A stretch of DNA of 47,599 nucleotides from Actinomycetota bacterium (lineage in GTDB: Bacteria > Actinomycetota > Thermoleophilia > Gaiellales > F1-60-MAGs149), in NCBI GenBank assembly GCA_009885805.1, contig VFJZ01000052.1:1-47599 (forward strand), written 5' to 3'. Position 1 is the stretch's first letter. Every line of letters starts with the position of its first letter. A program made the translations under genes and the position numbers. The notes beneath the pieces were generated by a model, which was not told the DNA's origin, made no database searches, and was given only the letters and a program-made list of their open reading frames with translations. Below, in pieces: positions 23,813-47,599 of the stretch.

Positions 23813-24763
23813 TCAGCTTACCGCGGCGACCGCGCGGAGGAAGGCGTGGTCCTGGGTCAGGAAGTCGAGTTCCTCACCGATCAGCGTCTCGAAGGGCGGA
23901 ACGCGCAGCGCCACCCACCGCCTCGGCCTGCCGGGCGCGTCGACGATCGCGACGCCCTCCTCCGGGCGATCGACCACGAACCGCACCCCACCCGCCGTCA
24001 GCGCCACCTGGAGCAGCGACCCTGCCCGCATGTCGTCCCGCGCGACCGGATCGAGGGCGAGCGCCGGGTCCGTCTCGGCCGAGGAGGCGAGCCAGCCCGC
24101 GAGCAGGCGAGCCTGCGCAGCCGAGCCGCGGACGTAGCGGATCGCGATCTGCTCGAGGCGGCCCAGCCGCTCGGCGTGATCCGGATCGTCGAAGATCGCG
24201 GCGATCACCTCCCGCCAGCCGGTGATCTTCGTCCAGGCGAGGTCGGTCACGATCTCGCGGCCCTGCGCGATCAGACCACCGAGGACGTCGAGCGTCGCGG
24301 GATGACGCGTCGAGTCGGTCACGAGCCGGGTCGCCAGCGGCCGCAGCGACGCGAACGGCGTCTCGTCGGGATCGAGCGGCGCCAGCCACAGCAGGAACAC
24401 CGGCAGGTCGGGGAGGAGCAGGCTCGCCGCCATGCTGGCGAGTGCGACCCCGTCGGACGGGCCCTGCAGCCGGACGAGCTCGCAGCAGACGAGGCTGTGA
24501 CCACCCTCCTGCATCGGCGAGCAGAACACCGACGACTCCGCTGTCACCCCGGTCGCCGTCGCGATCCCACAGGCGACGAGTGCGCGACTCGGTCGAGAGT
24601 GGCGGAGGGCGCCGATCGCGTTCGCACACGCGGTCGCGACCGCCGCGTCGTCGGCAAAGGCGACGAGGTCGACGATGTGCGTCCGCATCCCGGCCTGCTC
24701 ACCCGCCGCCGACCCGCGCAGGGCCGCCAGTTCGCGCTCGATCTGAAGCGGCGTCGTGGTCAC
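23813..24763 (-). CDS. opcA: Glucose-6-phosphate dehydrogenase assembly protein OpcA
   Basis: 316 aa from GTG 24763, overlapping the zwf stop (GTGA). Family segments visible are HIVDLVAFADD, ALRHSRPSRALVACG, VCCELVRLQG, LLLPDLPVFLLWL, and LDVLGGLIAQGREIVTDLAWTKITGWREVIAAIFDD in pieces. OpcA activates or assembles Zwf in actinobacteria and cyanobacteria. Position directly after zwf and before pgl is the usual arrangement. A longer frame from 24868 is only zwf read in another frame. Confidence 0.92.
   Translation of the reverse strand: MTTTPLQIERELAALRGSAAGEQAGMRTHIVDLVAFADDAAVATACANAIGALRHSRPSRALVACGIATATGVTAESSVFCSPMQEGGHSLVCCELVRLQGPSDGVALASMAASLLLPDLPVFLLWLAPLDPDETPFASLRPLATRLVTDSTRHPATLDVLGGLIAQGREIVTDLAWTKITGWREVIAAIFDDPDHAERLGRLEQIAIRYVRGSAAQARLLAGWLASSAETDPALALDPVARDDMRAGSLLQVALTAGGVRFVVDRPEEGVAIVDAPGRPRRWVALRVPPFETLIGEELDFLTQDHAFLRAVAAVS
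23815..23820 (-). promoter_or_regulatory. Possible internal -10 box before pgl (TAAGCT)
   Basis: TAAGCT on the reverse strand ends 6 bases before ATG 23808, over the last codons of opcA. It fits TANNNT but may be chance within an operon. Confidence 0.25.
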
Positions 24764-26274
24764 GGCCGGCGCCACCGCCGCCGGTCGCGTGCAACAAGCT
24801 CGTCCGCAGCCTCGGGGCCCCACGAGCCAGCCTCGTAGTGGTGCGGCCCGCCGCCCTGCAGCTGCCACGAGTCGAGCAGCGGCTCGATGATCCGCCAGGA
24901 CTCCTCGACGGCGTCCTGACGGGGGAAGTTGGTGCCGTCACCGCGCATCACGTCGAGAAGGAGCGTCTCGTAGGCCTCCGCCGGCGACGACGAGAACGCG
25001 GTGTCGTACTGGAAGTCCATGTTGACCGTCCGGATCTGGATCCGCTCGGACGGCACCTTCGCGCCGAAGCGCAAGGAGATTCCCTCGTTCGGCTGGATCC
25101 GCAGGACGAGCACGTTCGGCTCGAGCTGCTCCGCGGCCGCATAGGAGAACGGCAGGTGCGGGACGCGCTTGAACTGGATCGCGACTTCCGTCACGCGCTT
25201 CGGCAGTCGCTTGCCGGTGCGCAGGTAGATCGGCGTGTCGGCCCAGCGCCAGTTGTCGATCAGCAGCCGCATCGCGATGTAGGTCTCGACGTCGGAGTGC
25301 GCGCCGACGCCCTCCTCCTCCCGGTACGACCGCGCCAGCCGGCCGTCGGCGTGCCCGGCGACGTACTGCCCGCGGACGACGTCGGCCGGCCGCACCGGGC
25401 GACAGGAGACGAGCGCCTTGCCGCGCTCGTCGCGCACCGCCTCGGCATCGAACGACGCGGGCGGCTCCATCGCCACGAAGCTGAGCACCTGCAGCATGTG
25501 GTTCTGGACGATGTCGCGCAGCGCGCCGGCCTCCTCGTAGAACCTGCCGCGGCCCTCCACCCCGATCGACTCGGCGACGGTGATCTGGACGTGATCGATG
25601 AAGTTGCGGTTCCAGACCGGTTCGAAGATCCCGTTCGCGAACCGGAATACGAGGATGTTCTGGACCGACTCCTTCCCGAGGTAGTGGTCGATCCGGAAGA
25701 TCTGACGCTCGGCGAACGCCCGATGAACGGACGCGTTGAGCGCAGCCGAGCTCGCCAGGTCGCTGCCGAACGGCTTCTCGATCACGACGCGCCTGAACGT
25801 CCGGTCCGTCTCGGCGGCGAGGCCGGCGTCGCCGAGCCCGTCGACGATGACCGGGAACTGGGACGGCGGCACGCTGAGGTAGTAGAGGACGTTTCCTGCC
25901 GTCCCCAGGTCCGTGTCGGCCGCGGCCAACCGGGCCGCGAGTGCGGCGTACGTTGCGGCGTCGTCGAAGTTGCCGGTGATCCAGTGCAGCATCGCCGCGA
26001 AGCCCTGCCACTCGACCTCCGTCACGGGCGTGCGGGAGAACGACTCGCAGCGGGCCCGCATCTCCGCGCGGTAGCCCTCGTCGCCGCCGGCGTCGCGGCG
26101 GCCGATGCCGATCAGGGCGAACCCCGTCGGCAGGAGCCGGCGCAGGTAGAGGTTGTAGAGAGCCGGGACGAGCTTGCGGCCGGCGAGGTCGCCCTGACCG
26201 CCGAAGATGACCATCGCGCAGGGCCCGGGGACGCGATGCATCCGCAATTCGTCGCGGAGCGGGTTGACTGCCAT
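24760..26274 (-). CDS. zwf: Glucose-6-phosphate 1-dehydrogenase
   Basis: 504 aa from ATG 26274, sharing one base with the pgi stop (TGATG). The cofactor motif is IFGGQGDLAGRKLVPALY near residue 23; the substrate and catalytic signature RIDHYLGKESVQNIL is near 195, and KPFGSDL is just before. AGALRDIVQNHMLQVL and RLLIDNWRWADTPIYLRTGKRL complete the family pattern. It oxidises glucose 6-phosphate to the lactone, making NADPH. The usual GASGDL variant is GGQGDL here, as in many homologues. Confidence 0.95.
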   Translation of the reverse strand: MAVNPLRDELRMHRVPGPCAMVIFGGQGDLAGRKLVPALYNLYLRRLLPTGFALIGIGRRDAGGDEGYRAEMRARCESFSRTPVTEVEWQGFAAMLHWITGNFDDAATYAALAARLAAADTDLGTAGNVLYYLSVPPSQFPVIVDGLGDAGLAAETDRTFRRVVIEKPFGSDLASSAALNASVHRAFAERQIFRIDHYLGKESVQNILVFRFANGIFEPVWNRNFIDHVQITVAESIGVEGRGRFYEEAGALRDIVQNHMLQVLSFVAMEPPASFDAEAVRDERGKALVSCRPVRPADVVRGQYVAGHADGRLARSYREEEGVGAHSDVETYIAMRLLIDNWRWADTPIYLRTGKRLPKRVTEVAIQFKRVPHLPFSYAAAEQLEPNVLVLRIQPNEGISLRFGAKVPSERIQIRTVNMDFQYDTAFSSSPAEAYETLLLDVMRGDGTNFPRQDAVEESWRIIEPLLDSWQLQGGGPHHYEAGSWGPEAADELVARDRRRWRRP

Positions 26275-27800
26275 CAGTGGGCTCCGAGAGCGGCGCGGAC
26301 CGCCGCCTCGACGCGGTCGAGCGTAACCCGCGCGACGGGCTGACCCGTCGCGCGCAGGGCCTGCGCGTCGCCGATCGCCTGCGCCTCGATGACGGTGCGG
26401 AACGTCCACGGACGACCCGGAATCGGGGCGTCGGAGTCGCTGCCGGACACCACCTGGAGGTAGATCCCCTGCCGCGAGCCGCCCTTGTGGAGCTGACCGG
26501 TGGAGTGCAGGTAGCGCGGCCCGAAGCCGAGCTGCGTCGCGACGCCGAGGGTGTCTCGGATCTCGTGCCTGAGCCCCTGGAGCAGGTGCTCGTTCTCGCC
26601 GCTCGGCGTGACGTACGCCTGAATCACGACGAACGACCGGCCGCGTACGGCCGAGCCGAGAGCCGACCCGACGTCACCCGGGTCGACGGCGGCGAGCGCG
26701 CCGGTCGCCTCGTACGTCTGAAGCGCGGCGACGACCTCGTCCTTGGCCGCCTGGACGTTCGGCTGGTCGAACGGGTTGATCCGGAGCAGCGCGCCGCAGT
26801 AGGCGGTGGCGAGCTCCCAGAGGACCATCTGCGCACCGAGGTCCGGGGGTTCGGTGAGATGGATGCGCTCGACGTCGAAGCCGGCGGCCTCGATCGGCGC
26901 GACCTCGGCGTCCTTCATCCCGTCGAGCCGCAGGTAGACGAACAGCCGATCGTCGCCGTACACCGACGGCGGACCGGGTCGCTCCTCCGCCAGTGGGATG
27001 ACCCCGGTGCCGTCCTTGCCCGTCGACTCCGCCACCAGTTGCTCGAGCCAGAGGCCGAACGGTCCGATGCCGGGGTCGGTGATGATCGTCAGCTTGTCGC
27101 GCCCCTCGCGCACGCCGGCGGCGAGCAGCGCACCGAGCTGCAACGGCATGTTGCTGCCCGGGTCAGTGCCCGGCCCGGAGGCGGCGAGCATCGCGGCGGC
27201 CGAGTCGAGCAGCGGCATGATCTCGATCCCCGACAGTGCCGCCGGAACGAGGCCGAAGTAGGACAGGGCGGAGAAGCGGCCACCGATGTCCGGTCGGTTG
27301 AGAAAGACGCGCCGGAAGTTGCGCTCGACCGCCCGGCCGGCGAGTTTCGAGCCGGGGTCGGTGATGGCGATGAACCGGGAGGAGTCACGCCCGGTTGCTT
27401 CCCAGAAGTACTCCTCCATCACCTCCGGCTCGAGCGTCGAGCCCGACTTCGACCCGATCACGAACAACGAGCCGTCGATCGGCACCTGCCGGACGGCGTC
27501 GGGGTCGGTGGTGTCGAGGACGTGGATGATGCCGCCGAAGGCCTTGCCGAACACGAGCGGCGCGAGGCTCGAACCGCCCATTGCGCACAGCACGACACGG
27601 TCGAAGCCGCGCATCGTCGCGGACGCCCAGTCCTGGATCGCGGGCATCGCGCTTCGCATCTCCGCCACGACGGGGATCCAGCCCGTCCAGCGACCGATCT
27701 CGGCGGCGATCTCGGGATCGTCCGACCAGAGCGAGCCGTCGGCGGCAAACAGCTTGCGGACCGCGTCGCGCTCGATCAGCTCAGCGATCGCGTCAGACAC
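26274..27800 (-). CDS. pgi: Glucose-6-phosphate isomerase (actinobacterial pentose-cluster type)
   Basis: 508 aa from GTG 27800, with GGGAGG 8 bases upstream and an 8-base overlap with tkt. The SIS-type sugar-phosphate motifs are [17 protein letters not shown] near residue 72, [20 protein letters not shown], and the late [18 protein letters not shown] and [16 protein letters not shown]. This resembles the PGI half of bifunctional transaldolase/PGI proteins, but no transaldolase domain precedes it. It interconverts glucose 6-phosphate and fructose 6-phosphate, tying glycolysis to the Zwf branch. Why it occupies the usual tal position is unclear. Confidence 0.9.
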
Positions 27801-29778
27801 CGTGCACCTCCCTGACGGCAGCGACGACAGCTTCCGGTGAGATGCCGAGGTTGCGGGCAACGGTCTTGCCCGGCGCGGACGCGCCGAAGCGATCGATGCC
27901 GATGGAGTGCCCGTGATCGCCGACCCAGCGCTCCCAGCCGAAGGTCGAGCCGGCCTCGATCGACACCCGCGTCCGCACCGCCGGTGGCAGCACTTCGTCC
28001 CGGTACGCCGGGTCCTGCAGCGCGAACAGGTCCCACGACGGCATCGAGACGACGCGCACGCCGATGCCGGCGGCCTGCAGCACCTCGCGCGCGGCGAGCG
28101 CGTCGTGGACCTCGGAGCCCGAGGCGATCACGATCGCGTCGAGTCCGCCGCTGGCCTCGGCGAGCACGTACGCGCCGCGGGCAACGCCGCCCCCGGCCGT
28201 CGCCTCCAGGGTCGGCAGCGCCTGCCTCGTCAGCTGCAGCGCGGTCGGGCCGTCGCGGCGCTCCATCGCCAGACGCCACGCCCAGGCGGTCTCGTTCGCG
28301 TCGCACGGGCGGAACGAGACGAGGTTCGGGATCAGGCGGAGCGCCATCAGGTGCTCGACCGGCTGGTGCGTCGGCCCGTCCTCGCCGAGCCAGACCGAGT
28401 CGTGCGTCCAGACGTAGGTCACCGGGAGCTTCATGATCGCGGCGAGCCGGACCGCCGGGCGCATGTAGTCCGAGAAGATCAGGAACGTCGCGCCGAACAC
28501 GCGCAGGCCGCCGTGGCAGGCCATCCCGTTGAGGATCGAGCCCATGCCGTGCTCGCGGATGCCCCAGTGGAAGTTGCGACCGCCGTACGCGCCGGCGGCG
28601 ATCGACTCGTACGCCTTCATGTGCGTGTTGTTCGAGGGCGACAGGTCGGCCGAGCCGCCGACCAGTTCCGGCACGGCGGCCGCGACGGCCTGCAGGACCT
28701 TGCCGGAGGCAGCACGGGTCGCCATCGCGTCGTCGGCGGCGGTGAACGTCGGTACGGCGTCCGCAAACCCGGCGGGCAGGTCGCCGCGGAGCGTCCGCGA
28801 GAGCTCGGCGGCGAGGTCGGCGTGCGCGACGCGATAGGCGGCGACGCGGTCCTGCCAGGCGGCCGAGGCGGCGGCACCGGCGGCGCGCCGGTCGCAGTGC
28901 GCGGCGACGTCGTCGGGCACGAGGAACTGCGCGTCCTCCGGCCAGTCGTAGACGCGCTTCGTAAGGCGGATCTCCTCCTCGCCGAGCGGCTCACCGTGGG
29001 CGCTGGCGGTGTCCTGCTTGTTGGGCGAGCCAGGCGCGATGTGGGTGCGGACGATGATCATGCTCGGCCGCTCGTCGGCGTCGGCCGCGGCGAGCGCGGC
29101 CCGCATCGTGTCGAGCGTCCAGGTGTCGTCGAAGCGCTGCACGTGCCAGCCGTACGCGGTGTAGCGAGCGCCGACGTCCTCGGAGAAGGACAGTGCCGTG
29201 TCACCCTCGATCGAGATGTGGTTGTCGTCGTAGAAGCAGGTGAGGCGTCCGAGGCGCAGGTGACCGGCGAGCGACGACACCTCCGCCGAGACGCCCTCCT
29301 GGAGATCGCCGTCGGAGCAGATGCAGTACGTGCGGTGGTCGACGATCTCGTGTCCCGGCCGGTTGAAACGCTCGGCCAGCATCCGCTCGGCCAGTGCCAT
29401 GCCGACGGCGTTGCCGACGCCCTGCCCGAGCGGGCCGGTCGTCGTCTCGATGCCCGGCGTGTCGTGCAGCTCGGGATGCCCGGGAGTCGCCGATCCCCAC
29501 TGCCGGAACGACTGCAGGTCCTCGCTGCTGACCCCATAGCCCGCCAGGTGCAGCGCCGCGTACTGGAGGATGCAGGCGTGGCCGGCGGAGAGCACGAAGC
29601 GGTCCCGATCCGGCCAGTGCGGATCGGCCGGGTCGTGCCGCATCACCTCGCTGTAGAGGAGGTAGGCGAGCGGCGCAAGCGCCATGGCGGTGCCCGGATG
29701 TCCCGAGTTCGCCTTCTGCACCCCATCCATGGCAAGGGTGCGGATGGTCGTGATCGACCGATCTTCGACGGAGGACAT
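27793..29778 (-). CDS. tkt: Transketolase
   Basis: 661 aa from ATG 29778. The N-terminal TPP-binding half has [57 protein letters not shown] and [13 protein letters not shown] (the GDG-type motif). The pyrimidine-binding half has [18 protein letters not shown] and [20 protein letters not shown]. The length is standard. It transfers two-carbon units in the non-oxidative pentose phosphate pathway. It is the first gene of tkt-pgi-zwf-opcA-pgl; no convincing -10 box was seen in the 32 bases before it. Confidence 0.95.
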
Positions 29779-37942: not shown

Positions 37943-38533
37943 TCAGACGTCCGCCGTGTACGGCGGCGCCGGGTCGTACTGGATGTAACGCTGCACTTCC
38001 CGCGCGTGGCTGACGCCGTGCAGCTGGCCGACGATCCAGAGCGCCATGTCGATGCCGGCCGAGACGCCCTGGCTCGAGACGACGCTGCCCGAGCGGACGA
38101 AACGCGCCTTGCGCTCGACGATCGCGCCGCTGGCCTCGAGCCTGTCCTCGAAGCTCCAGTGCGTGGCGAGCGGCCTCCCGTCCGCGACACCCGCGGCGTG
38201 GAGGATCAGCGCCCCGGTGCAGACACTGGTCAGCCACGTCGCCGTTGTCGCCGCGCGGCGCACCCAGTCGAGGAACGCCGGGTTCTCCGCGTCGCGGTCG
38301 GTGCCGTCACCGCCGGGAATCAGCACGACGTCGACGTTCGCCGTCTCGGCGAGCGTCGCGTCGGGCAGCACGCGCAGCCCCTTCGCGCCCGTGATCGGCT
38401 CCAGCCGGTCCGAGATCACCACGACCGTGTCGCCCGCGTCGCGGATGTCGCGCGACGCCGCGAACACCTCGTACGGGCCGGCCAGGTCGAGCTCCTCGAA
38501 CAGGTCGAACGCGACGATCCCGTAGCTGGTCAT
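37943..38533 (-). CDS. DJ-1/PfpI family protein
   Basis: 196 aa from ATG 38533, overlapping the stop of the AraC-type gene (ATGA). A single DJ-1/PfpI (class I glutamine amidotransferase-like) domain: IVAFDLFEELDLAGPYEVFAA, VLIPGGDGTDRD, and the nucleophile-elbow Cys in TSVCTGALILHAAG near residue 105. Relatives include isonitrile hydratase and stress-related hydrolases; activity here is unknown. It closely matches the N-terminal domain of the gene just upstream, suggesting duplication. The 37-base gap to the tRNA holds a weak 6-bp hairpin. Confidence 0.88.
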   Translation of the reverse strand: MTSYGIVAFDLFEELDLAGPYEVFAASRDIRDAGDTVVVISDRLEPITGAKGLRVLPDATLAETANVDVVLIPGGDGTDRDAENPAFLDWVRRAATTATWLTSVCTGALILHAAGVADGRPLATHWSFEDRLEASGAIVERKARFVRSGSVVSSQGVSAGIDMALWIVGQLHGVSHAREVQRYIQYDPAPPYTADV

Positions 38534-39492
38534 GCGTGGTCTCCCGTCTCACTCGTGAGCGCGAACCGCGCCCGGTACTCGGTCGGCGCAATGCCGACGT
38601 GACGCCGGAACGCGCGGCGCATGGTCTCCGCCGAGCCGAATCCCGTCCGTTGCGCGACGGCCTCGACCCCGACCTCCTCGGTCTCGAGCAGCCGCCGGGC
38701 AGACTCGACCCGCGCGCGCTCCACGTACCGGCGCGGCGGCGAGCCGACGCGGGCGGTGAAGAGGCGCTGGAAGTGGCGCTCACTCATGTTCGCGACGCGG
38801 GCGAGCGCCGGGACGGAGAGATCCGCTGCCGGCTCCGCGTGGATCCGGTCCTGAACATCCCGGAGCCCGCCTGGCGGTGCTGGCTCGCACCAGACGCTCG
38901 CGGCGTACTGGCTCTGGCCGCCGGAGCGCCGGAGGCCCATCACGAGTCGGCGGGCTATCCGTTGGGCCTCGGCCGCACCGCGGTCCTCCTCGACGAGCGC
39001 GAGCGCCAGGTCAAGCCCGGCCGTCACGCCGGCCGATGTCCAGACGCGGCCGGCGCGGATGAAGATCGGATCGGCGTCGACCGCGACGTCCGGGTAGTCG
39101 GTGGCGAGTCGGCCGGCGTGATCCCAGTGCGTCGTGGCACGGCGGCCAGCGAGGAGGCCGGCGGCGGCGAGCAGGTAGGCGCCGGTGCAGACGCTCGCCG
39201 CGCGCCGGGCGACGGCACCGGCCGCGGCGACCCACGCCACCGTCGCCGCCGTCCTCGCGGCGGCGTAGACGCCAGCGCCGCCGGCGATGACCAGGGTGTC
39301 GAGCGACACCAGGTCGACCTCGTGCAGCGCTCGGTCGGCGTCGATGGTGAGACCGGACTCGCTGACGACCAGGCCGGCGATCGGAGCCGCGACGCTGACC
39401 TCCATGCCGGCAGCAGCGAACACCTCGTGCGGGCCCGCGAGATCGAGGGCCTGGAAGCCCGGATAGATCACGATCACGGTACGGCCCGACAT
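38530..39492 (-). CDS. GlxA-type transcriptional regulator (DJ-1 domain plus AraC HTH)
   Basis: 320 aa from ATG 39492 (GTG 39498 is an alternative). The N-terminal DJ-1/PfpI domain shows VIVIYPGFQALDLAGPHEVFAAAG, TLVIAGGAGVYAAAR and SVCTGAYLLAAAG. The C-terminal AraC HTH (residues about 215-315) has VPALARVANMSERHFQRLFTARVGSPPRRYVE and VEAVAQRTGFGSAETMRRAFRRHVG in pieces. It probably senses a small molecule through the DJ-1 domain and regulates the coupled DJ-1 gene or neighbours. Confidence 0.9.
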   Translation of the reverse strand: MSGRTVIVIYPGFQALDLAGPHEVFAAAGMEVSVAAPIAGLVVSESGLTIDADRALHEVDLVSLDTLVIAGGAGVYAAARTAATVAWVAAAGAVARRAASVCTGAYLLAAAGLLAGRRATTHWDHAGRLATDYPDVAVDADPIFIRAGRVWTSAGVTAGLDLALALVEEDRGAAEAQRIARRLVMGLRRSGGQSQYAASVWCEPAPPGGLRDVQDRIHAEPAADLSVPALARVANMSERHFQRLFTARVGSPPRRYVERARVESARRLLETEEVGVEAVAQRTGFGSAETMRRAFRRHVGIAPTEYRARFALTSETGDHA

Positions 39493-39499
39493 CAGCACG

Positions 39500-39558: not shown

Positions 39559-41031
39559 CTACACCCCGACCACCGGCCGCTCGCCGACCGCGGCGCGCCC
39601 GAGCAGCGCATGGCGGGCGAGGCCGACGCAGGCGTCGAGGTCGTGCTCGCGGTACATCTGGAGCTTCTCCGCCTCCGGCGAGCCGGAGCCGTGGATGATC
39701 TCCGTGTACCAGTAGCCGCCGTACTCGGACGCCGCGAGGTCGCGGATCAGCTTCATCACCCGCAGCCGCTCCATCGCCGAGTCGGGCTCGACGCCCCGGT
39801 AGTACTTCTCGATGAACGGCCTCAGGTCGGGGCGCATGATGTCCTCGACATAGGGCGAGGTGATCACCGACCCGCCCGCGATCTCGAGCAGGTTGCGGGC
39901 CGCCAGGTAGTGGCCCTCCATCGCCATGTGCTTGCCGGCATTGGTGAGCACCGGGTCCGGCACCTGCCAGCCCTCCTCGGAGCGGCTCTCGATCGACGCT
40001 GTCACGCCGAGCGCCCAGATCGACCGCTCGAGCCGGATCATCTCGGTGATCTTCGAGCGGATGTGCGGCGCCTTCGCGACGCCGTTCAGTTCGGCCGCGA
40101 GCTGCGCGGCGCCGATGAACAGCCGCAGCTTGCCGACGTCGGCGCCGAGGTAGCCCTGGCGGTTGACGTTCGCGAACGTGTTCGCGACATCGCCGGCGTA
40201 GGCCGACTCGCCGCACATGAAGACTCGCTCCCACGGGACGAAGACGTCGTCGAAGATCGTGAACGACTCCATCAGGTCGTCGTGCGAGGAGACGGGTGCC
40301 TCGAACTCGTCCGGGTTCTCACCGGAGAAGCCGCGGCAGACAAGCTTGATGCCGGGCGTGTCGACCGGTGTCGCGAACGCCACCGCGTAGTCGGCATCCT
40401 CGGGCCGCATCGCCCGCTGCGGGATGATCACGAGCTCGTTCGCCACGACCGACCCGGACGTGTGCGCCTTCGCACCACGGACGACGATGCCGTCATCGCG
40501 GCGCTCGATGACGCGCAGGTAGAGGTCCGGGTCGTCCTGATCGGCCGGCCGCTTCGACCGGTCGCCCTTCACGTCCGTCACTGCAGCAGCGGTCATCAGC
40601 TGCTCGCGCTGGAACCGCTGGACGTATGAGACGACGCGCGGGTGGTAGCTCGTTCCCAGCTCACGATCCATCCGCCGCGTCACGATCAGCAGCGACTGCA
40701 GCTGATCGCGCCCGATCGACGCGTAGCCGGACAGCGGCGAGCGCTCCGACAGGGTCCGCGCCGCGCGGAGGTTCGTCAGGAGGTCCTCGACGGACGTCGC
40801 CATGTGCCAGAAGACGTGACACTCCTCGCCGTTCAGGTCGGGCGAGACGACCATGCCCGCGCGCAGCTCGGGCATGTGTGCCGCGCGGCAGACCCACGAG
40901 CCCCAGCACGCCATGGTCGAGGCGAACAGGGGATGGTCGGCGACGTTCGTGATGCGCTCTCCGCGCGCGTACACCTCCGGTGACTGCTGTCGCAGGCTCT
41001 CAACGTACTGCTCGGGTGTTCGCAGGCCCAT
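39559..41031 (-). CDS. HpaB/AbfD-family flavoprotein without Fe-S ligands
   Basis: 490 aa from ATG 41031, with GAGGAGGAG 4 bases upstream; the start overlaps the tetR end by 32 bases. The fold is that of 4-hydroxyphenylacetate 3-hydroxylase and 4-hydroxybutyryl-CoA dehydratase: DVKGDRSKRPADQDDPDLYLRV, GIVVRGAKAHTSGSVVANE, VPWERVFMCGE and NRQGYLGADVGKLRLFIG. The 490-aa length is dehydratase-like. However, the positions of the dehydratase cluster ligands (two Cys, His, Cys) read SGYASIG and NVNRQGYLG. I therefore favour an FAD-dependent hydroxylase or oxidase-like enzyme. Its reductase partner is not adjacent. Confidence 0.82.
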   Translation of the reverse strand: MGLRTPEQYVESLRQQSPEVYARGERITNVADHPLFASTMACWGSWVCRAAHMPELRAGMVVSPDLNGEECHVFWHMATSVEDLLTNLRAARTLSERSPLSGYASIGRDQLQSLLIVTRRMDRELGTSYHPRVVSYVQRFQREQLMTAAAVTDVKGDRSKRPADQDDPDLYLRVIERRDDGIVVRGAKAHTSGSVVANELVIIPQRAMRPEDADYAVAFATPVDTPGIKLVCRGFSGENPDEFEAPVSSHDDLMESFTIFDDVFVPWERVFMCGESAYAGDVANTFANVNRQGYLGADVGKLRLFIGAAQLAAELNGVAKAPHIRSKITEMIRLERSIWALGVTASIESRSEEGWQVPDPVLTNAGKHMAMEGHYLAARNLLEIAGGSVITSPYVEDIMRPDLRPFIEKYYRGVEPDSAMERLRVMKLIRDLAASEYGGYWYTEIIHGSGSPEAEKLQMYREHDLDACVGLARHALLGRAAVGERPVVGV

Positions 41032-41668
41032 GATGCTCCTCCTCGTGGGGTGTGTAGCGCGTGACGGCCAGGCGCAGGTGTCGGCCGATCACGGCGGGAT
41101 CGGGCGGGGCGGCGCCCGCGACGCGATGTGCCATCGCCGCGTAGCGAGCGGCGACCTCGGACAGGTCGAGACGGCCATCCGGCCGGTACCAGATGCCGAC
41201 GTTGGTGCACATCGCAACGATTGCGAAGCGCGCGAGTACGGGGTCATCGAGGACGAAGACACCGGCCGCCGCGCCATCGGCGAGCACGTCGCGCAGGAGT
41301 GCCTCGTAGGCGTCGCGCAGGGCGATCACGCCGTCGCGACGCTCGCCCGCCAGGCTGCGCAACTCCGTCTCCCCCAGCGTCGCCTCCCGCGGCCGCAGCG
41401 CGTGCAGCGCGACGTGGTGGACGACGAACGCCGTCAGCCGGGACGACGGGTCGGTCTCGGCCCGGACCGCCTCGCCGACCCCGGTCTCGAGCAGCGTCAT
41501 CGTCGAGGAGACAAGGTCGTAGAGGATCTGCTGCTTGTCCGCGTAGTGGTGGTAGATGCTCGCCGCCCGGATGTCGAGGTCGCCCGCGATCTCCCGCACG
41601 GTCGTAGCCTCGAAGCCCTGCACGAAGAACCGGTCCGCCGCCGCCGCTCGAATGGCGCCGCGGGTCAC
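41000..41668 (-). CDS. TetR-family transcriptional regulator
   Basis: 222 aa from GTG 41668, overlapping the acyl-CoA synthetase stop (GTGA). The HTH is AAADRFFVQGFEATTVREIAGDLDIRAASIYHHYADKQQILYDLV in pieces, ending in the typical YHHYADK. The helical C-terminal domain, with GVFVLDDPVLARFAIVAMCTNVGIWYRPDG, resembles acyl-CoA-responsive KstR/FadR-like members. It probably represses its own operon through the palindrome at 43146-43161, released by a CoA thioester made by the synthetase (inference). Confidence 0.9.
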   Translation of the reverse strand: MTRGAIRAAAADRFFVQGFEATTVREIAGDLDIRAASIYHHYADKQQILYDLVSSTMTLLETGVGEAVRAETDPSSRLTAFVVHHVALHALRPREATLGETELRSLAGERRDGVIALRDAYEALLRDVLADGAAAGVFVLDDPVLARFAIVAMCTNVGIWYRPDGRLDLSEVAARYAAMAHRVAGAAPPDPAVIGRHLRLAVTRYTPHEEEHHGPANTRAVR

Positions 41669-43145: not shown

Positions 43146-43161
43146 CCTAACGAGCGTTAGG
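43146..43161. promoter_or_regulatory. TetR-type operator palindrome
   Basis: CCTAACGAGCGTTAGG has perfect 7-bp arms around AG. It lies between ATG 43140 of the acyl-CoA synthetase and the VOC gene, overlapping the VOC TAA stop. TACCCT (43159-43164, reverse strand) overlaps its right arm and would start transcription inside the palindrome. The form fits TetR regulators of CoA-ester metabolism. Confidence 0.65.
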
Positions 43162-43633
43162 GTAGCACCGCCTCGGGTGGCCGGCGCTCGCGCGGAACCT
43201 CGATCAACTCGACGATCGTCCCGTGGGCCGCGACCGTGTCGAGGTAGACGAACGCGCCGCTGCCGTCCGCGCCAAAGCCGTGGCCGTCCTGCAGGATGGC
43301 GAAGCCCGAGGCCGCGGCGGCTGCCGCCGCATCGGGGACGTAGATGCCGACGTGGTGCAGTCCCTCGCCGTGGCGTTCGAGGTGCTCGTGAAAGACGCTC
43401 GGCCCGTCGAGCGGCTCGATCAGTTCGATCTGCGGATCGCTGCCGGCGAGCGCGATGCGCATCCGGAATGTGCCCGGCGCACCGCGGTAGGTGAGCGATC
43501 GCAGCGTCTGCGATCCGTACGTCCAGACCCGCCAGCCGGCGCCGCGGACGATCGGGCTCCAGGCCGCAGCCGCCCGCTCGAGGTCGCGCACGACGAGCGC
43601 GACCTGACCGACTGGACCCGGCAGCGGCATCAT
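43157..43633 (-). CDS. VOC-superfamily (glyoxalase/epimerase-like) protein
   Basis: 158 aa from ATG 43633, overlapping the kinase stop (ATGA). Two beta-alpha-beta-beta-beta modules: VGQVALVVRDLERAAAAWS, then PQIELIEPLDGPSVFHEHL, GEGLHHVGIYVPD and TIVELIEVPRE. The pattern is closest to methylmalonyl-CoA epimerase, but the first metal ligand (normally His) is Gln; Glu, His and Glu remain. It could be an epimerase, lyase or dioxygenase of a pathway intermediate. It ends the coupled set that begins with the FAD oxidoreductase. Confidence 0.85.
   Translation of the reverse strand: MMPLPGPVGQVALVVRDLERAAAAWSPIVRGAGWRVWTYGSQTLRSLTYRGAPGTFRMRIALAGSDPQIELIEPLDGPSVFHEHLERHGEGLHHVGIYVPDAAAAAAASGFAILQDGHGFGADGSGAFVYLDTVAAHGTIVELIEVPRERRPPEAVLP
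43159..43164 (-). promoter_or_regulatory. Candidate -10 box of the acyl-CoA synthetase operon (TACCCT)
   Basis: TACCCT on the reverse strand, 18 bases before ATG 43140, overlaps the TetR-type palindrome so that repressor binding would block RNA polymerase. Confidence 0.4.
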
Positions 43634-44568
43634 CGGGCGGCCGCCAGTGCCGCGTCGAGCGCTCCGCTTCCGACCGGACGGCGCGCTCGCTCGTAGTAGG
43701 TCGCGGCCCAGGCGCGATAGTCCCAATCGAGATCGAGCACCGGCTCGGCGATCACCGCCCACGTCGCCTCCCGCAACGCGCTCATGAACAGCATCAGTTC
43801 GAGCCGGGCTGCATGTCGTGGGTCGTCATCGCCGAAGTACGCGCGCAGCAGCTGCGCGCGCTCCGGGGCATCGAGTTCGGCGTTCACGGTCACGCTCCCG
43901 AGGTCGAAGTAGGGGTTGCCGGTGCCCGCGAACTCCCAGTCGAGCACCTGGATCGTGGTGCCGTCATCGATGAAGTTCGGGATCTGGAGGTCGTTGTGGC
44001 AGAGCTGATCGAGCGCCCCGACCGCCTCGAACAGGGCCTCCGCGCGGTCGGCGAAGCCGTTCAGCTGATCGATGTCGGCGGGCAGGTCGAGGTCCTCCGC
44101 GCGCGCCAACCGCGTGTACGCAGCCTGATCACGGAAGATCGAGAAGCGCCCGGCGACGGTCGCGGCCGTGTCGTGGATGTGACGGAGGGTCGAGGCGACA
44201 CGGTCGAGCACGCCCGTCGCGCGGATGGTCGCGGGGTCGAGCACCGTCCCGTCGACGAAGCGTGCGAGCGAGTGCCCGGTGGCAGGGTCGGCGGCGAGGA
44301 GTGCCGGCGCATGCCCGATCGCAGCGACGGAACGATGCGCGTCGAGGCCCCGCGCCCGGTCAATGCCGAATCGCTCGACCCCCTGGGAGGCGACGCGCAG
44401 CACGCTCCGGCACCCGTCGCTGCCGCCGACGAGGTAGTTGGCGTTCGAGGCGCCGCCGGCGAGGACCGCGACCGCGCAGCCAGCGCGGAGCTCCGCGAGG
44501 TCGAACGCCCGGAGGAGCGCCGCGATCTCGTCGCGACGAGTCGCGGGCACGGAGGCGTCGAACGTCAC
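43630..44568 (-). CDS. Choline/ethanolamine-kinase-like phosphotransferase
   Basis: 312 aa from GTG 44568, overlapping the aminotransferase stop (GTGA). The APH/choline-kinase signature is LCHNDLQIPNFIDDGT near residue 193 and IQVLDWEFAGTGNPYFDLGSV near 212. The nucleotide loop GGASNANYLV is near residue 40. It phosphorylates an alcohol-bearing small molecule, often an amino alcohol. Pairing with a class III PLP enzyme recalls the hydroxylysine kinase/phospho-lyase and ethanolamine-phosphate phospho-lyase systems, but the substrate here is unknown. Confidence 0.87.
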   Translation of the reverse strand: MTFDASVPATRRDEIAALLRAFDLAELRAGCAVAVLAGGASNANYLVGGSDGCRSVLRVASQGVERFGIDRARGLDAHRSVAAIGHAPALLAADPATGHSLARFVDGTVLDPATIRATGVLDRVASTLRHIHDTAATVAGRFSIFRDQAAYTRLARAEDLDLPADIDQLNGFADRAEALFEAVGALDQLCHNDLQIPNFIDDGTTIQVLDWEFAGTGNPYFDLGSVTVNAELDAPERAQLLRAYFGDDDPRHAARLELMLFMSALREATWAVIAEPVLDLDWDYRAWAATYYERARRPVGSGALDAALAAAR

Positions 44569-45869
44569 GTCCACGAATCCGCGTCCTCGAACACGGCGGC
44601 GATCGCCGCGACGGTCTGCGCGATGGCATCGTCGTCGTGGGCGGCGGTGAGGAGGCAGAGTCCCCGCTCGGGGATCAGCACACCGTGGGCGAGCAGGGCG
44701 TCCGTGAAGGCCGCGACCGGCCCCTGGTCGCAGGTGCGGACGTCGGCGTAGGAGCGGATCGGCAGCTGCGGGCGCCAGATCAGCTGCAGCACGCCGCCGA
44801 TCTGCTCCGCGTGGAGCGGCACGCCGGCCTTCGCCGCGCCCGTCTCGATCGCCTCCCGCAGGGCCGCGCCGAGTCGTTCGAGGCGAGGATAGATCTCGCC
44901 GGCGCGCGTGCGCAGTTCCGTCAGCGTCGCGATCGAGGCGGCGAGCGCCGGCCCGGTGGCGTTGTAGGTCCCGCTCGTACGAACGGCGCCGTCGGCGGCG
45001 CTCGCCATCGCGACCCGGGAGCCGGCGAGCGCCGCGACGGGGAAGCCCGACGCCATCGCCTTGGCGAACACGGCCAGGTCGGGGGTGACGCCGAAGCGCT
45101 TCTGCGCGCCGCCGAGCGCGACCCGGAACCCGGTAATGACCTCGTCGAAGACGAGGAGCGCCCCGTGCCGATCGCACAGCCTACGCGCCGCCTCCAGGTA
45201 GCCCGGCTGCGGGAGGTACGACCCCGAGTTGCATGGGACGGCCTCCATCAGCACGCAGGCGACCTGCTCCGGATGGGAGGCGAGGAGCGACGCGAGCGCG
45301 TCGGCGTCGTTCCACGGGGCGACGAGGACCCCGGTCGGCACGGGCGCGCCCGGCACCGCGTGTCGGACCTCCAGCGGGACCGGCCCCGAGACGGGATCCT
45401 GTCCCAGCGTGTTCACGAAGACCGGGTCGAGCCAGCCGTGGTACTGCCCGTCGAACTTGATCACGAGCGGGCGACCGGTCGTCGCCCTCGCGACGCGGAT
45501 CGCGAGCTGGATCGCCTCGGAGCCGCTGGTCTGGAACGTCACCAGCTCAGCGCAGGGCACGAGGTCGCGCACCAGTTCGGCCAGCTCGAGTTCGACTGCG
45601 ACTGGGCCGCCATTGAGCGGCGCCGGGCCGTCCAGGAACCCGCGGACGGCCGCCATCACGACGGGTGCGCGATGCCCGAGGAAGGGCGGACCGAAGCCCG
45701 TGTAGTAGTCGATGTAGACGTTGCCATCGAGGTCGGTGACGCGACACCCCGAGGCCTCGGCGAGCACCGGCGTCGGACCGCGCGTTCGGAGCCGCGCCGC
45801 CGACGAACAGCCGCGCGGGATGACGCCGCGGGCACGTTCCATGTGCCGCGCGGAGCGCTCAGTCGCCAC
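44565..45869 (-). CDS. HemL-like class III aminotransferase/aminomutase
   Basis: 434 aa from GTG 45869, overlapping the SDR end by 11 bases. It follows glutamate-1-semialdehyde 2,1-aminomutase throughout: HMERARGVIPRG, VTDLDGNVYIDYYTGFGP, TFQTSGSEAIQLAIRVARA, KFDGQYHGWLDPV, LLVFDEVITGFR (cofactor Asp near residue 235) and FAKAMASGFPVAAL (Schiff-base Lys near 262). The context is catabolic (FAD oxidoreductase, SDR, kinase), not tetrapyrrole synthesis, so it is probably a HemL paralogue acting on another amino acid, an amino alcohol phosphate or a beta-amino acid. Confidence 0.88.
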   Translation of the reverse strand: MATERSARHMERARGVIPRGCSSAARLRTRGPTPVLAEASGCRVTDLDGNVYIDYYTGFGPPFLGHRAPVVMAAVRGFLDGPAPLNGGPVAVELELAELVRDLVPCAELVTFQTSGSEAIQLAIRVARATTGRPLVIKFDGQYHGWLDPVFVNTLGQDPVSGPVPLEVRHAVPGAPVPTGVLVAPWNDADALASLLASHPEQVACVLMEAVPCNSGSYLPQPGYLEAARRLCDRHGALLVFDEVITGFRVALGGAQKRFGVTPDLAVFAKAMASGFPVAALAGSRVAMASAADGAVRTSGTYNATGPALAASIATLTELRTRAGEIYPRLERLGAALREAIETGAAKAGVPLHAEQIGGVLQLIWRPQLPIRSYADVRTCDQGPVAAFTDALLAHGVLIPERGLCLLTAAHDDDAIAQTVAAIAAVFEDADSWT

Positions 45870-46614
45870 CTGCGGCCTCCAGACCGGCCATCTGCGTGAC
45901 CATCCCGCCGTCGACGATGACGGTTGTCCCGGTCATGAACGAGGCCCCGGGGCCGGCGAGGAAGACGGCAACCGACGCGATCTCCTCCGGCTCACCGGGA
46001 CGTCCGAGCATGTTGAACGCGACGGGCTTGCCGAGCATTCCTGCCTCCTCGAAGAACGGCCGCGCCATCGGTGTCAGCACCCAGCCCGGCGCGATGCAAT
46101 TCACGCGGATCCCGTCGGTGGCGAGTTCCCGCGCCGCGTACATCGCGAAGTTGACGAGCGCAGCCTTGGAGGCGCCGTAGGGCGCCATCAGCGGCTCGGC
46201 CTGATGGGCGTTCACGCTGGCGACGAGCACCACCGCACCGCGCGTCGCCCGTAGATGGGGGATCGCCGCCTGCGCCGCGTTGACCTGCCCCAGCAGGTTG
46301 ATCTGGAGCACCTCGAGCCAGTCGGCGGCGGTCAGTTCCTCGATCGGCTTGAAGTTGCCGATCACGCCGTGGGCGCAGACCACGGCGTCGAGCCGGCCGA
46401 AGCGCTCGGCGGTCTCGTCCACGGCGCGGCGCGCCGCGACGTCGTCGGCCATGTCCGCCTGGACGGTATGGATGCCGTCGTCCACGGCCGCGAGCCGGCC
46501 GCCGTCGCGGCCGCACACCGCGACCGACCAGCCCTCGTCGCGGAACCTGCGCGCCGTCGCCAGGCCGATGCCACTCGATCCGCCCGTCACGAGCGCGACA
46601 CGTTCGTCGGTCAT
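45859..46614 (-). CDS. Short-chain dehydrogenase/reductase (SDR)
   Basis: 251 aa from ATG 46614, overlapping the FAD-oxidoreductase stop (ATGA). Classical SDR: cofactor motif VTGGSSGIGLATA near residue 9, NNAG-equivalent CAHGVIG, catalytic Ser in VASVNAHQ, YxxxK in APYGASKAAL near 155-159, and IDGG-type ending TTVIVDGGM. It oxidises or reduces a hydroxyl or keto group with NAD(P)(H). Its place between an amine/amino-acid oxidase and an aminotransferase suggests handling of an intermediate in the same pathway. Confidence 0.92.
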   Translation of the reverse strand: MTDERVALVTGGSSGIGLATARRFRDEGWSVAVCGRDGGRLAAVDDGIHTVQADMADDVAARRAVDETAERFGRLDAVVCAHGVIGNFKPIEELTAADWLEVLQINLLGQVNAAQAAIPHLRATRGAVVLVASVNAHQAEPLMAPYGASKAALVNFAMYAARELATDGIRVNCIAPGWVLTPMARPFFEEAGMLGKPVAFNMLGRPGEPEEIASVAVFLAGPGASFMTGTTVIVDGGMVTQMAGLEAAGGD

Positions 46615-47599
46615 CCGAACCTCCGGGGTAGGAGTGCAGGGGCGTCCCGGAAGGATGGCGCATCGCCGAGCACCGCCCACTCGGCGGCGATCAGCCCGAC
46701 GAGCGGGGACACGGTCAGACCGACGCCGCCGCAGCCCGCCGCCGCGATCACCTCGGGCCGCTCCGGGTGCGGCCCGACGATGAAGTGCCCGTCGGGGCTG
46801 ACGGGATAGAGACCGGCCCAGCCCGGCTCGAGCCGGATCTCGCCGATGCCGCCCAGGCGATGCGAGAGCCGCTCGGCGACAGCCTCCTGCTCGTCGAACG
46901 ACACCGTCCGGGCGAACACGTCCGGGTCGGCCGGCGGGTCCGTCGCCGCGTAGGTGTGCAGACCGCAGAGGAGACGATCGCTCCCGTCGGGGCGGAAGTA
47001 GAGACCGGCAGTTGCGGCGCCCGGCAGGTACTCGTTCACCGTCGGCAGCGCCGCGGGCGCGGCGAGGTGCGCCACGAGCAAGGCGTGACGCTGGGGGAGC
47101 AGCGGCACGCGGACACCGAGCGCCTCGGCAACACGGGCGGCGTGCGGGCCGGCGGCGTTGATGACGCGATCGGCGCCGGCGCGGGGATCGAACGGCCGGC
47201 CGGTGCGGATCTCCACCCCGAGCGCCTGCGCCTCCGCGGCGTAGGCGGCGCAGAGAAGGTGACCGTCGAGGACGCCGTCGTCGGCGCCGTAGAGCGCGCC
47301 GGCGAGGTCGTCGCAACGGATCCCCGGCGCCAGCCGGGAGAGTTCGTCCGGATCGACGAGTCGCCCGCCGTCGTAGCCGAGCGTCCGCTGTCGATCGAGG
47401 ACGGCCGCGAGCAAGGCGAGGGCGTCGCCGTCGGCGGCCAGGCGCGCGTAGCCGCAGCGGATCAGTCCAATCCCGTGCCGGCGCTCGAGGTCGGCGAACG
47501 CGTCGGCCGAGCGGATCCGGAGCTCCAGCTCGAGCTCGTTCGTCGTCTGCCGGTTGAAGATCCCGGCCGACAACCCGGACGAGCCGCCGGCGATGACGC
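46611..47599 (-). CDS. FAD-dependent oxidoreductase, DAO family (5' partial)
   Basis: At least 329 aa; the frame runs through the right edge, where VIAGGSSGLSAGIF is the FAD-binding GxGxxG region, so only a few N-terminal residues are missing. Later landmarks are VDPDELSRLAPGI, DRVINAAGPHAARVAEALG, LLPQRHALLVAHL, and the C-terminal YPVSPDGHFIVGPHP with AAGCGGVGLTVSPLVG. This is the sarcosine/glycine/D-amino-acid oxidase-dehydrogenase group, which oxidises a C-N bond to an imine. It leads the coupled SDR, aminotransferase, kinase and VOC genes. Confidence 0.88.
   Translation of the reverse strand, partial: VIAGGSSGLSAGIFNRQTTNELELELRIRSADAFADLERRHGIGLIRCGYARLAADGDALALLAAVLDRQRTLGYDGGRLVDPDELSRLAPGIRCDDLAGALYGADDGVLDGHLLCAAYAAEAQALGVEIRTGRPFDPRAGADRVINAAGPHAARVAEALGVRVPLLPQRHALLVAHLAAPAALPTVNEYLPGAATAGLYFRPDGSDRLLCGLHTYAATDPPADPDVFARTVSFDEQEAVAERLSHRLGGIGEIRLEPGWAGLYPVSPDGHFIVGPHPERPEVIAAAGCGGVGLTVSPLVGLIAAEWAVLGDAPSFRDAPALLPRRFG

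What the first reader, a model, noticed from the sequence alone, without database searches (positions are those of the whole stretch)
43157..47599. Coupled oxidoreductase-SDR-aminomutase-kinase-VOC operon: candidate undescribed catabolic system
Five genes overlap end to end (ATGA, 11 bases, GTGA, ATGA), so they are made together. The mix of C-N-oxidising flavoprotein, SDR, HemL-like PLP enzyme, choline-kinase-like kinase and epimerase-like VOC protein matches no pathway I know. Kinase plus class III PLP enzyme is the logic of hydroxylysine and ethanolamine-phosphate phospho-lyases: phosphorylate a hydroxyl, then eliminate phosphate and ammonia. A route for an amino alcohol or hydroxylated amino acid is a reasonable hypothesis.
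Basis: inference. Interest (0 to 1): 0.7.

Follow-up and report, generated by a model that had tools for sequence, protein, structure and literature searches.

The report
Amine-breakdown operon with conserved kinase-oxidase core
A bacterium, probably an actinomycete relative, carries a tightly packed set of at least eight genes that looks like an undescribed route for breaking down a hydroxylated amine; three of its enzymes also travel together on plasmids of bean-nodule and tomato-root bacteria, but the exact compound is unknown and the proposed kinase-plus-lyase chemistry is not supported.

Summary
The five genes are real, minus-strand and overlapping as described (the first is cut by the contig end). 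ACS, TetR and an HpaB-family gene follow; the only gap (16 nt) holds a palindrome unique in the genome, so a TetR-controlled second unit is likely. The exact five-gene set was found nowhere else. Two sub-modules are conserved. (1) Kinase + DAO flavoprotein + acyl-CoA ligase: of 72,556 plasmids, the only ligase hits (E<=1e-50) are 25 Rhizobium/Sinorhizobium/Sphingobium records; clusters read there hold all three genes, and trees join the window kinase (100/99) and DAO (91/88) with them. (2) PLP enzyme + VOC, adjacent in two other genomes of the class. The PLP enzyme is not tetrapyrrole HemL (outside that clade; W and E signature residues lost; genome has a separate hemL). It lies in the GSAM-like branch, away from documented class III lyases, so phospho-lyase is unlikely and transaminase likelier. 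Kinase relatives sit beside DAO-GcvT genes in 22 of 26 loci. Best reading: catabolism of a hydroxylated, possibly N-alkylated, amine; substrate and step order unproven. Ordinary families, combination I found undescribed.

The parts
46611..47597 (-). DAO-family FAD oxidoreductase (N-terminal ~35-40 aa beyond the contig end)
   Evidence: Pfam DAO 159 bits; groups with DAOs of the Rhizobium/Sphingobium plasmid clusters, 39-41% identity, UFBoot/SH-aLRT 91/88
45859..46614 (-). short-chain dehydrogenase/reductase (SDR)
   Evidence: Pfam adh_short_C2 197 bits; generic SDR, no specific link to the plasmid-cluster SDRs (32-35%)
44565..45869 (-). PLP enzyme, class III aminotransferase of the GSAM-like branch but not HemL
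   Evidence: Pfam Aminotran_3 164 bits; TIGR00713 hemL 294.6 v cut-off 527; outside true-HemL clade; W and E signature residues replaced
43630..44574 (-). choline-kinase/APH-fold small-molecule kinase, GntI-related family
   Evidence: Pfam APH 73 bits, NCBIfam GntI 198 bits v cut-off 357; groups with plasmid-cluster kinases 100/99
43157..43633 (-). VOC-fold protein (Glyoxalase_4; methylmalonyl-CoA-epimerase-like superfamily)
   Evidence: PF13669 54 bits; 51-54% identical VOC next to PLP-enzyme homologues in G129 (L118) and G736 (L211)
43147..43160 (.). palindrome CTAACGAGCGTTAG, probable TetR operator, in the VOC/ACS gap
   Evidence: only match with <=1 mismatch in the window (0.03 expected) and in the whole 3.56 Mb genome
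41665..43140 (-). class I adenylate-forming enzyme (acyl-CoA ligase, ACS)
   Evidence: AMP-binding 213 bits; only plasmid hits at E<=1e-50 are 25 Rhizobium/Sinorhizobium/Sphingobium records; no hit at 1e-60 in 60 relatives
41000..41668 (-). TetR-family regulator
   Evidence: TetR_C_24 105 bits; GTGA overlap with ACS; 24-28% identity to the plasmid-cluster TetRs
39559..41031 (-). HpaB-family flavoprotein closest to 4-hydroxybutyryl-CoA dehydratase but without its Fe-S ligands
   Evidence: 1u8v 277 bits v 159 bits for 4-HPA hydroxylase; C99, C103, H292, C299 aligned with S, S, N, A (identity of the ligands from memory)

Best explanation
This is a catabolic operon for a hydroxylated, possibly N-alkylated, amine or amino acid. 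Its conserved core (kinase, DAO flavoprotein, acyl-CoA ligase) is shared with plasmid clusters of rhizobia and sphingobia. Inferred steps: DAO oxidises a C-N bond (deamination or N-dealkylation); the kinase phosphorylates a hydroxyl; the SDR oxidises or reduces a hydroxyl/carbonyl; the PLP enzyme transaminates, or less likely shifts, an amino group; the resulting acid is activated as a CoA thioester by the ligase and processed by the HpaB/AbfD-like flavoprotein; the VOC protein epimerises or isomerises a keto intermediate. The ligase-TetR-HpaB part probably has its own TetR-repressed promoter. Shown here: gene identities, overlaps, conserved core, phylogenetic placements, unique palindrome. 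Inferred: substrate class, order of steps, each reaction, TetR binding.
For: Gene families and junctions. KIN, DAO and ACS each find the same Rhizobium/Sinorhizobium/Sphingobium plasmids; these are the only ACS hits among 72,556 plasmids. KIN tree support 100/99 and DAO 91/88. The annotated clusters also hold EutH or EutQ, permeases, aldehyde dehydrogenase, SDRs, SurE, BKACE and, in Sinorhizobium, CoA transferase, a catabolic make-up. Kinase relatives sit within 5 kb of a DAO-GcvT gene in 22 of 26 loci, often with a GS-like ligase (12), C26 hydrolase (11), aldehyde dehydrogenase (10) and permease (16). PLP enzyme + VOC adjacent in G129 and G736. GSAM-like PLP relatives sit with transporters, SDRs and dehydratases. 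Operator-like palindrome.
Against: No enzyme here has a characterised close relative; identities to cluster members are only 30-41%. The SDR shows no specific link to the plasmid SDRs. The plasmid clusters lack the PLP enzyme and VOC, and the PLP-VOC loci lack the kinase, so parts may serve different reactions. No transporter or substrate-revealing gene is visible beside the operon; the upstream end is lost.
Confidence: 0.6

Rival explanations
1. One reading: the kinase phosphorylates an amino alcohol or hydroxy amino acid and the PLP enzyme eliminates phosphate and ammonia, as in ethanolamine-phosphate or hydroxylysine phospho-lyase pathways.
For: Kinase of the APH/choline-kinase fold and a class III PLP enzyme adjacent and overlapping; kinase family linked to amine genes.
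Against: PLP enzyme falls in the GSAM-like branch; closest solved structures are GSAM and none named phospho-lyase is in the best 60; known class III lyases are described as near other aminotransferases (PMC8154272). PLP enzyme and kinase are not neighbours in any other locus seen; in G129 and G736 the PLP enzyme pairs with VOC without the kinase.
Confidence: 0.12
2. Two pathways placed side by side: a PLP+VOC(+SDR) route and a kinase-DAO-ACS route, joined by recent rearrangement and not acting on one substrate.
For: Each sub-module is conserved without the other; operator-like palindrome before ACS.
Against: The genes are interleaved (DAO-SDR-PLP-KIN-VOC-ACS) with overlapping starts, which is hard to explain without joint function.
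Confidence: 0.2
3. Biosynthesis of a specialised metabolite: the best NCBIfam kinase hit is GntI, and the PLP enzyme scores as well to GntE as to HemL (guanitoxin pathway families).
For: GntI 198 bits, GntE 292.5 bits.
Against: Both well below curated cut-offs (357, 525). GntI-like kinases occur in amine-catabolic loci of this class and score up to 304 bits there, so the hit marks a broad family. No other gene of that pathway was recognised in the cluster; acyl-CoA ligase, TetR and the plasmid-cluster context point to catabolism.
Confidence: 0.08

Closest known systems
Uncharacterised kinase-DAO-acyl-CoA-ligase clusters on Rhizobium, Sinorhizobium and Sphingobium plasmids
   Same: Related kinase (30-33%), DAO (39-41%), acyl-CoA ligase (40-41%), SDRs and a TetR in one catabolic cluster
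   Different: They carry aldehyde dehydrogenase, saccharopine-dehydrogenase-like protein, SurE, BKACE and EutH or EutQ; they lack the PLP enzyme, VOC and HpaB
Glutamate-1-semialdehyde 2,1-aminomutase (HemL)
   Same: Same fold and branch; PLP lysine and most cofactor residues kept
   Different: Outside the HemL clade, signature Trp and Glu replaced, and the genome has its own hemL
Hydroxylysine kinase/PHYKPL and ethanolamine-phosphate phospho-lyase (AGXT2L) systems
   Same: Kinase of APH fold plus class III PLP enzyme
   Different: PLP enzyme from a different branch of class III
GlnA4 ethanolamine and Puu-type gamma-glutamyl-amine pathways (PMC6529630 for GlnA4)
   Same: Kinase relatives in this class lie with GS-like ligase, C26 hydrolase and aldehyde dehydrogenase
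   Different: No GS-like ligase or C26 hydrolase in the window operon

Membership tests
HemL (GSAM, tetrapyrrole synthesis) | TIGR00713 equivalog cut-off (527 bits) | tested here: not met
   294.6 bits
HemL (GSAM, tetrapyrrole synthesis) | Placement in the clade of GTLSGNP-bearing HemLs | tested here: not met
   Outside the 41-row clade (SH-aLRT 99) that holds the genome's own hemL, L206
HemL (GSAM, tetrapyrrole synthesis) | SWGP tryptophan and (Y/F)EA glutamate of the active site | tested here: not met
   GFGP and PERGL in the window enzyme (residue roles from memory)
Phospho-lyase (AGXT2L/PHYKPL type) | Placement with the phospho-lyases, outside the GSAM-like branch | tested here: inconclusive
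   Window enzyme branches with GSAM-like enzymes, separate (100) from omega-aminotransferase-type paralogues, but no verified phospho-lyase sequence was in the tree
Phospho-lyase (AGXT2L/PHYKPL type) | Elimination of phosphate and ammonia | not testable with these tools
   needs an enzyme assay
Choline-kinase/APH-fold small-molecule kinase | APH/Choline_kinase domain with HxDxxxxN and DWE motifs | tested here: met
   PF01636 73 bits, PF01633 49 bits; HNDLQIPN and DWE
GntI / GntE (guanitoxin pathway) | NCBIfam equivalog cut-offs | tested here: not met
   198 v 357 and 292.5 v 525 bits
Kinase-DAO-ACS plasmid module | Kinase, DAO and ACS all nearest to the same clusters | tested here: met
   for ACS no tree, only exclusivity of hits
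Methylmalonyl-CoA epimerase | TIGR03081 cut-off (115 bits) | tested here: not met
   34 bits
4-hydroxybutyryl-CoA dehydratase (for the HpaB-family gene) | Fe-S ligands C99, C103, H292, C299 | tested here: not met
   aligned residues S, S, N, A (ligand identity from memory)

The most novel reading that the evidence does not exclude
A cross-phylum, biochemically undescribed catabolic pathway in which a choline-kinase-like enzyme phosphorylates a hydroxylated amine that is also oxidised by a DAO flavoprotein and activated as a CoA thioester; present on plasmids of root-associated alphaproteobacteria and, with a GSAM-like transaminase and a VOC isomerase added, in this organism.
Probability: 0.4. 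Interest if true: 0.6.

Novelty: new variant of a known kind. Interest (0 to 1): 0.42.

Why it matters
If the conserved kinase-DAO-ligase core is one pathway, it gives a defined gene set on plasmids of bean-nodule and tomato-root bacteria whose substrate can be found by growth screens and gene deletions. It also gives a context for the many GntI-related kinases that sit beside amine-oxidase genes. The window shows a recombined version of that core.

Tried and rejected
VOC orthologues across the phylum: diverse contexts, including a sugar-acid cluster (L182), none beside a PLP enzyme except G129. DAO relatives in the same family of genomes: other contexts. I first took L195 for an AGXT2L-type fusion; NCBIfam shows an omega-aminotransferase type, so it is no lyase marker. 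Operator palindrome in the plasmid clusters: not found. Literature searches for the plasmid cluster and for amino-alcohol kinase/phospho-lyase operons gave nothing on point; the library holds open-licence papers only.

Full report
Observation. All match their families strongly. The window is the complete contig C36 of a 3.56 Mb, 101-contig genome, so the DAO gene is cut by the contig end. The 16-nt gap carries CTAACGAGCGTTAG, the only match with up to one mismatch in the window (0.03 expected) and in the whole genome. I read it as the operator of the neighbouring TetR, hence two units: DAO-SDR-PLP-KIN-VOC and ACS-TetR-HpaB; this is inference.

Organism. Unnamed. GC is 72%, and the genome's true hemL is sister to one from an Actinomycetota metagenome-assembled genome, so Actinomycetota is likely.

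PLP enzyme. It scores 294.6 bits to hemL (cut-off 527) and 292.5 to GntE (cut-off 525); the closest solved structures are GSAMs. In a 109-row tree it lies outside the true-HemL clade, which contains the genome's own hemL, and joins L118 (98) and then L120 and L037 (99). HemL's SWGP tryptophan and (Y/F)EA glutamate are replaced by GFGP and PERGL; an arginine is shared by its closest relatives at that spot. The class III enzymes documented to catalyse eliminations are ethanolamine-phosphate phospho-lyase, a close relative and PbfA; PbfA is most similar to GABA and beta-alanine aminotransferases (PMC8154272). I had no verified phospho-lyase sequence for the tree, so the argument rests on branch placement. 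Transamination is the likeliest reaction, aminomutation second, elimination third (inference).

Kinase. A choline-kinase/APH-fold kinase with intact motifs. Relatives, most from the same class, lie within 5 kb of an ~820-residue DAO-GcvT protein in 22 of 26 loci examined, often with a GS-like ligase (12), a C26 hydrolase (11), an aldehyde dehydrogenase (10) and an amino-acid permease (16). That resembles gamma-glutamyl-amine pathways such as the GlnA4 ethanolamine route (PMC6529630, abstract). The loci were chosen by kinase similarity and many come from related genomes, so they are not independent events.

Conserved core. In the plasmid collection the window's acyl-CoA ligase hits at E<=1e-50 only 25 records: Rhizobium (15), Sphingobium (8), Sinorhizobium (2). 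The DAO search at 1e-22 returns 28 records, 25 of them of these three genera, and the kinase search returns them too. In the loci read, kinase, ligase, SDRs and DAO lie in one cluster with aldehyde dehydrogenase, SurE and EutH or EutQ. Trees join the window kinase with these kinases (100/99) and the window DAO with these DAOs (91/88). None of 60 relatives has a ligase hit at 1e-60. The core is thus shared across phyla but patchy, which suggests horizontal spread. The SDR shows no such link.

PLP + VOC. The closest PLP homologues, in G129 and G736 (both 51% over the matched part), each have the VOC gene (51-54%) beside them. In G129 the pair follows 2-oxoacid dehydrogenase E1 alpha, E1 beta and E2 genes. 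Elsewhere VOC orthologues sit with other oxidoreductases.

Conservation of the five. Not seen in the genomes searched: kinase in 101 relatives, 396 of the phylum and 299 of the class; PLP enzyme in 299 of the class and 146 of one family; VOC in 396 of the phylum; DAO in 101 relatives; these sets overlap and thresholds differed. Neighbourhoods were read for the best matches only.

Verdict. A real, tightly packed, probably catabolic operon acting on a hydroxylated amine, with a cross-phylum core for which I found no description. The families are common, the substrate is unknown, and the kinase-plus-phospho-lyase mechanism is unlikely.

Noticed in passing
43147-43160: Perfect palindrome CTAACG-AG-CGTTAG overlapping the VOC stop codon; unique in the genome at up to one mismatch; likely TetR operator.
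   Followed up: yes
39559-41031: HpaB-family protein closest to 4-hydroxybutyryl-CoA dehydratase but with all four Fe-S ligand positions replaced (S, S, N, A): a cluster-less relative whose reaction is unclear.
   Followed up: partly
L123, L124, L127, L221, L224-L230 (kinase loci of the same class): Recurrent cluster of GntI-like kinase, DAO-GcvT, GS-like ligase, C26 hydrolase, aldehyde dehydrogenase and permease: apparently an amine pathway with both a kinase and a gamma-glutamyl ligase.
   Followed up: partly
L139/L232 (Sphingobium), L141/L231 (Sinorhizobium), L162 (Rhizobium): Plasmid-borne catabolic cluster with kinase, DAO, acyl-CoA ligase, SurE, EutH or EutQ and BKACE in bean-nodule and tomato-root bacteria; substrate unknown.
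   Followed up: partly
L182 9777-10310: VOC orthologue embedded in a sugar-acid type cluster (Gfo/Idh/MocA, enolase family, 2-hydroxyacid dehydrogenase, RuBisCO-like protein, DUF1537-type kinase), hinting that this VOC family acts on keto-acid or keto-sugar intermediates.
   Followed up: no
37943-39498: PfpI-family gene and AraC-type regulator with a PfpI domain, overlapping by ATGA, downstream of the HpaB gene; the two PfpI domains are 36% identical.
   Followed up: no
L118 16580-18688; L211 1000-3108; L232 29548-33434: Hydantoinase/oxoprolinase-type genes lie near both PLP-VOC loci and near the Sphingobium kinase-DAO cluster.
   Followed up: no
24760-29778: Genes that read like glucose-6-phosphate dehydrogenase, transaldolase/isomerase and transketolase are clustered on the same contig (read from the translations, not scanned).
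   Followed up: no
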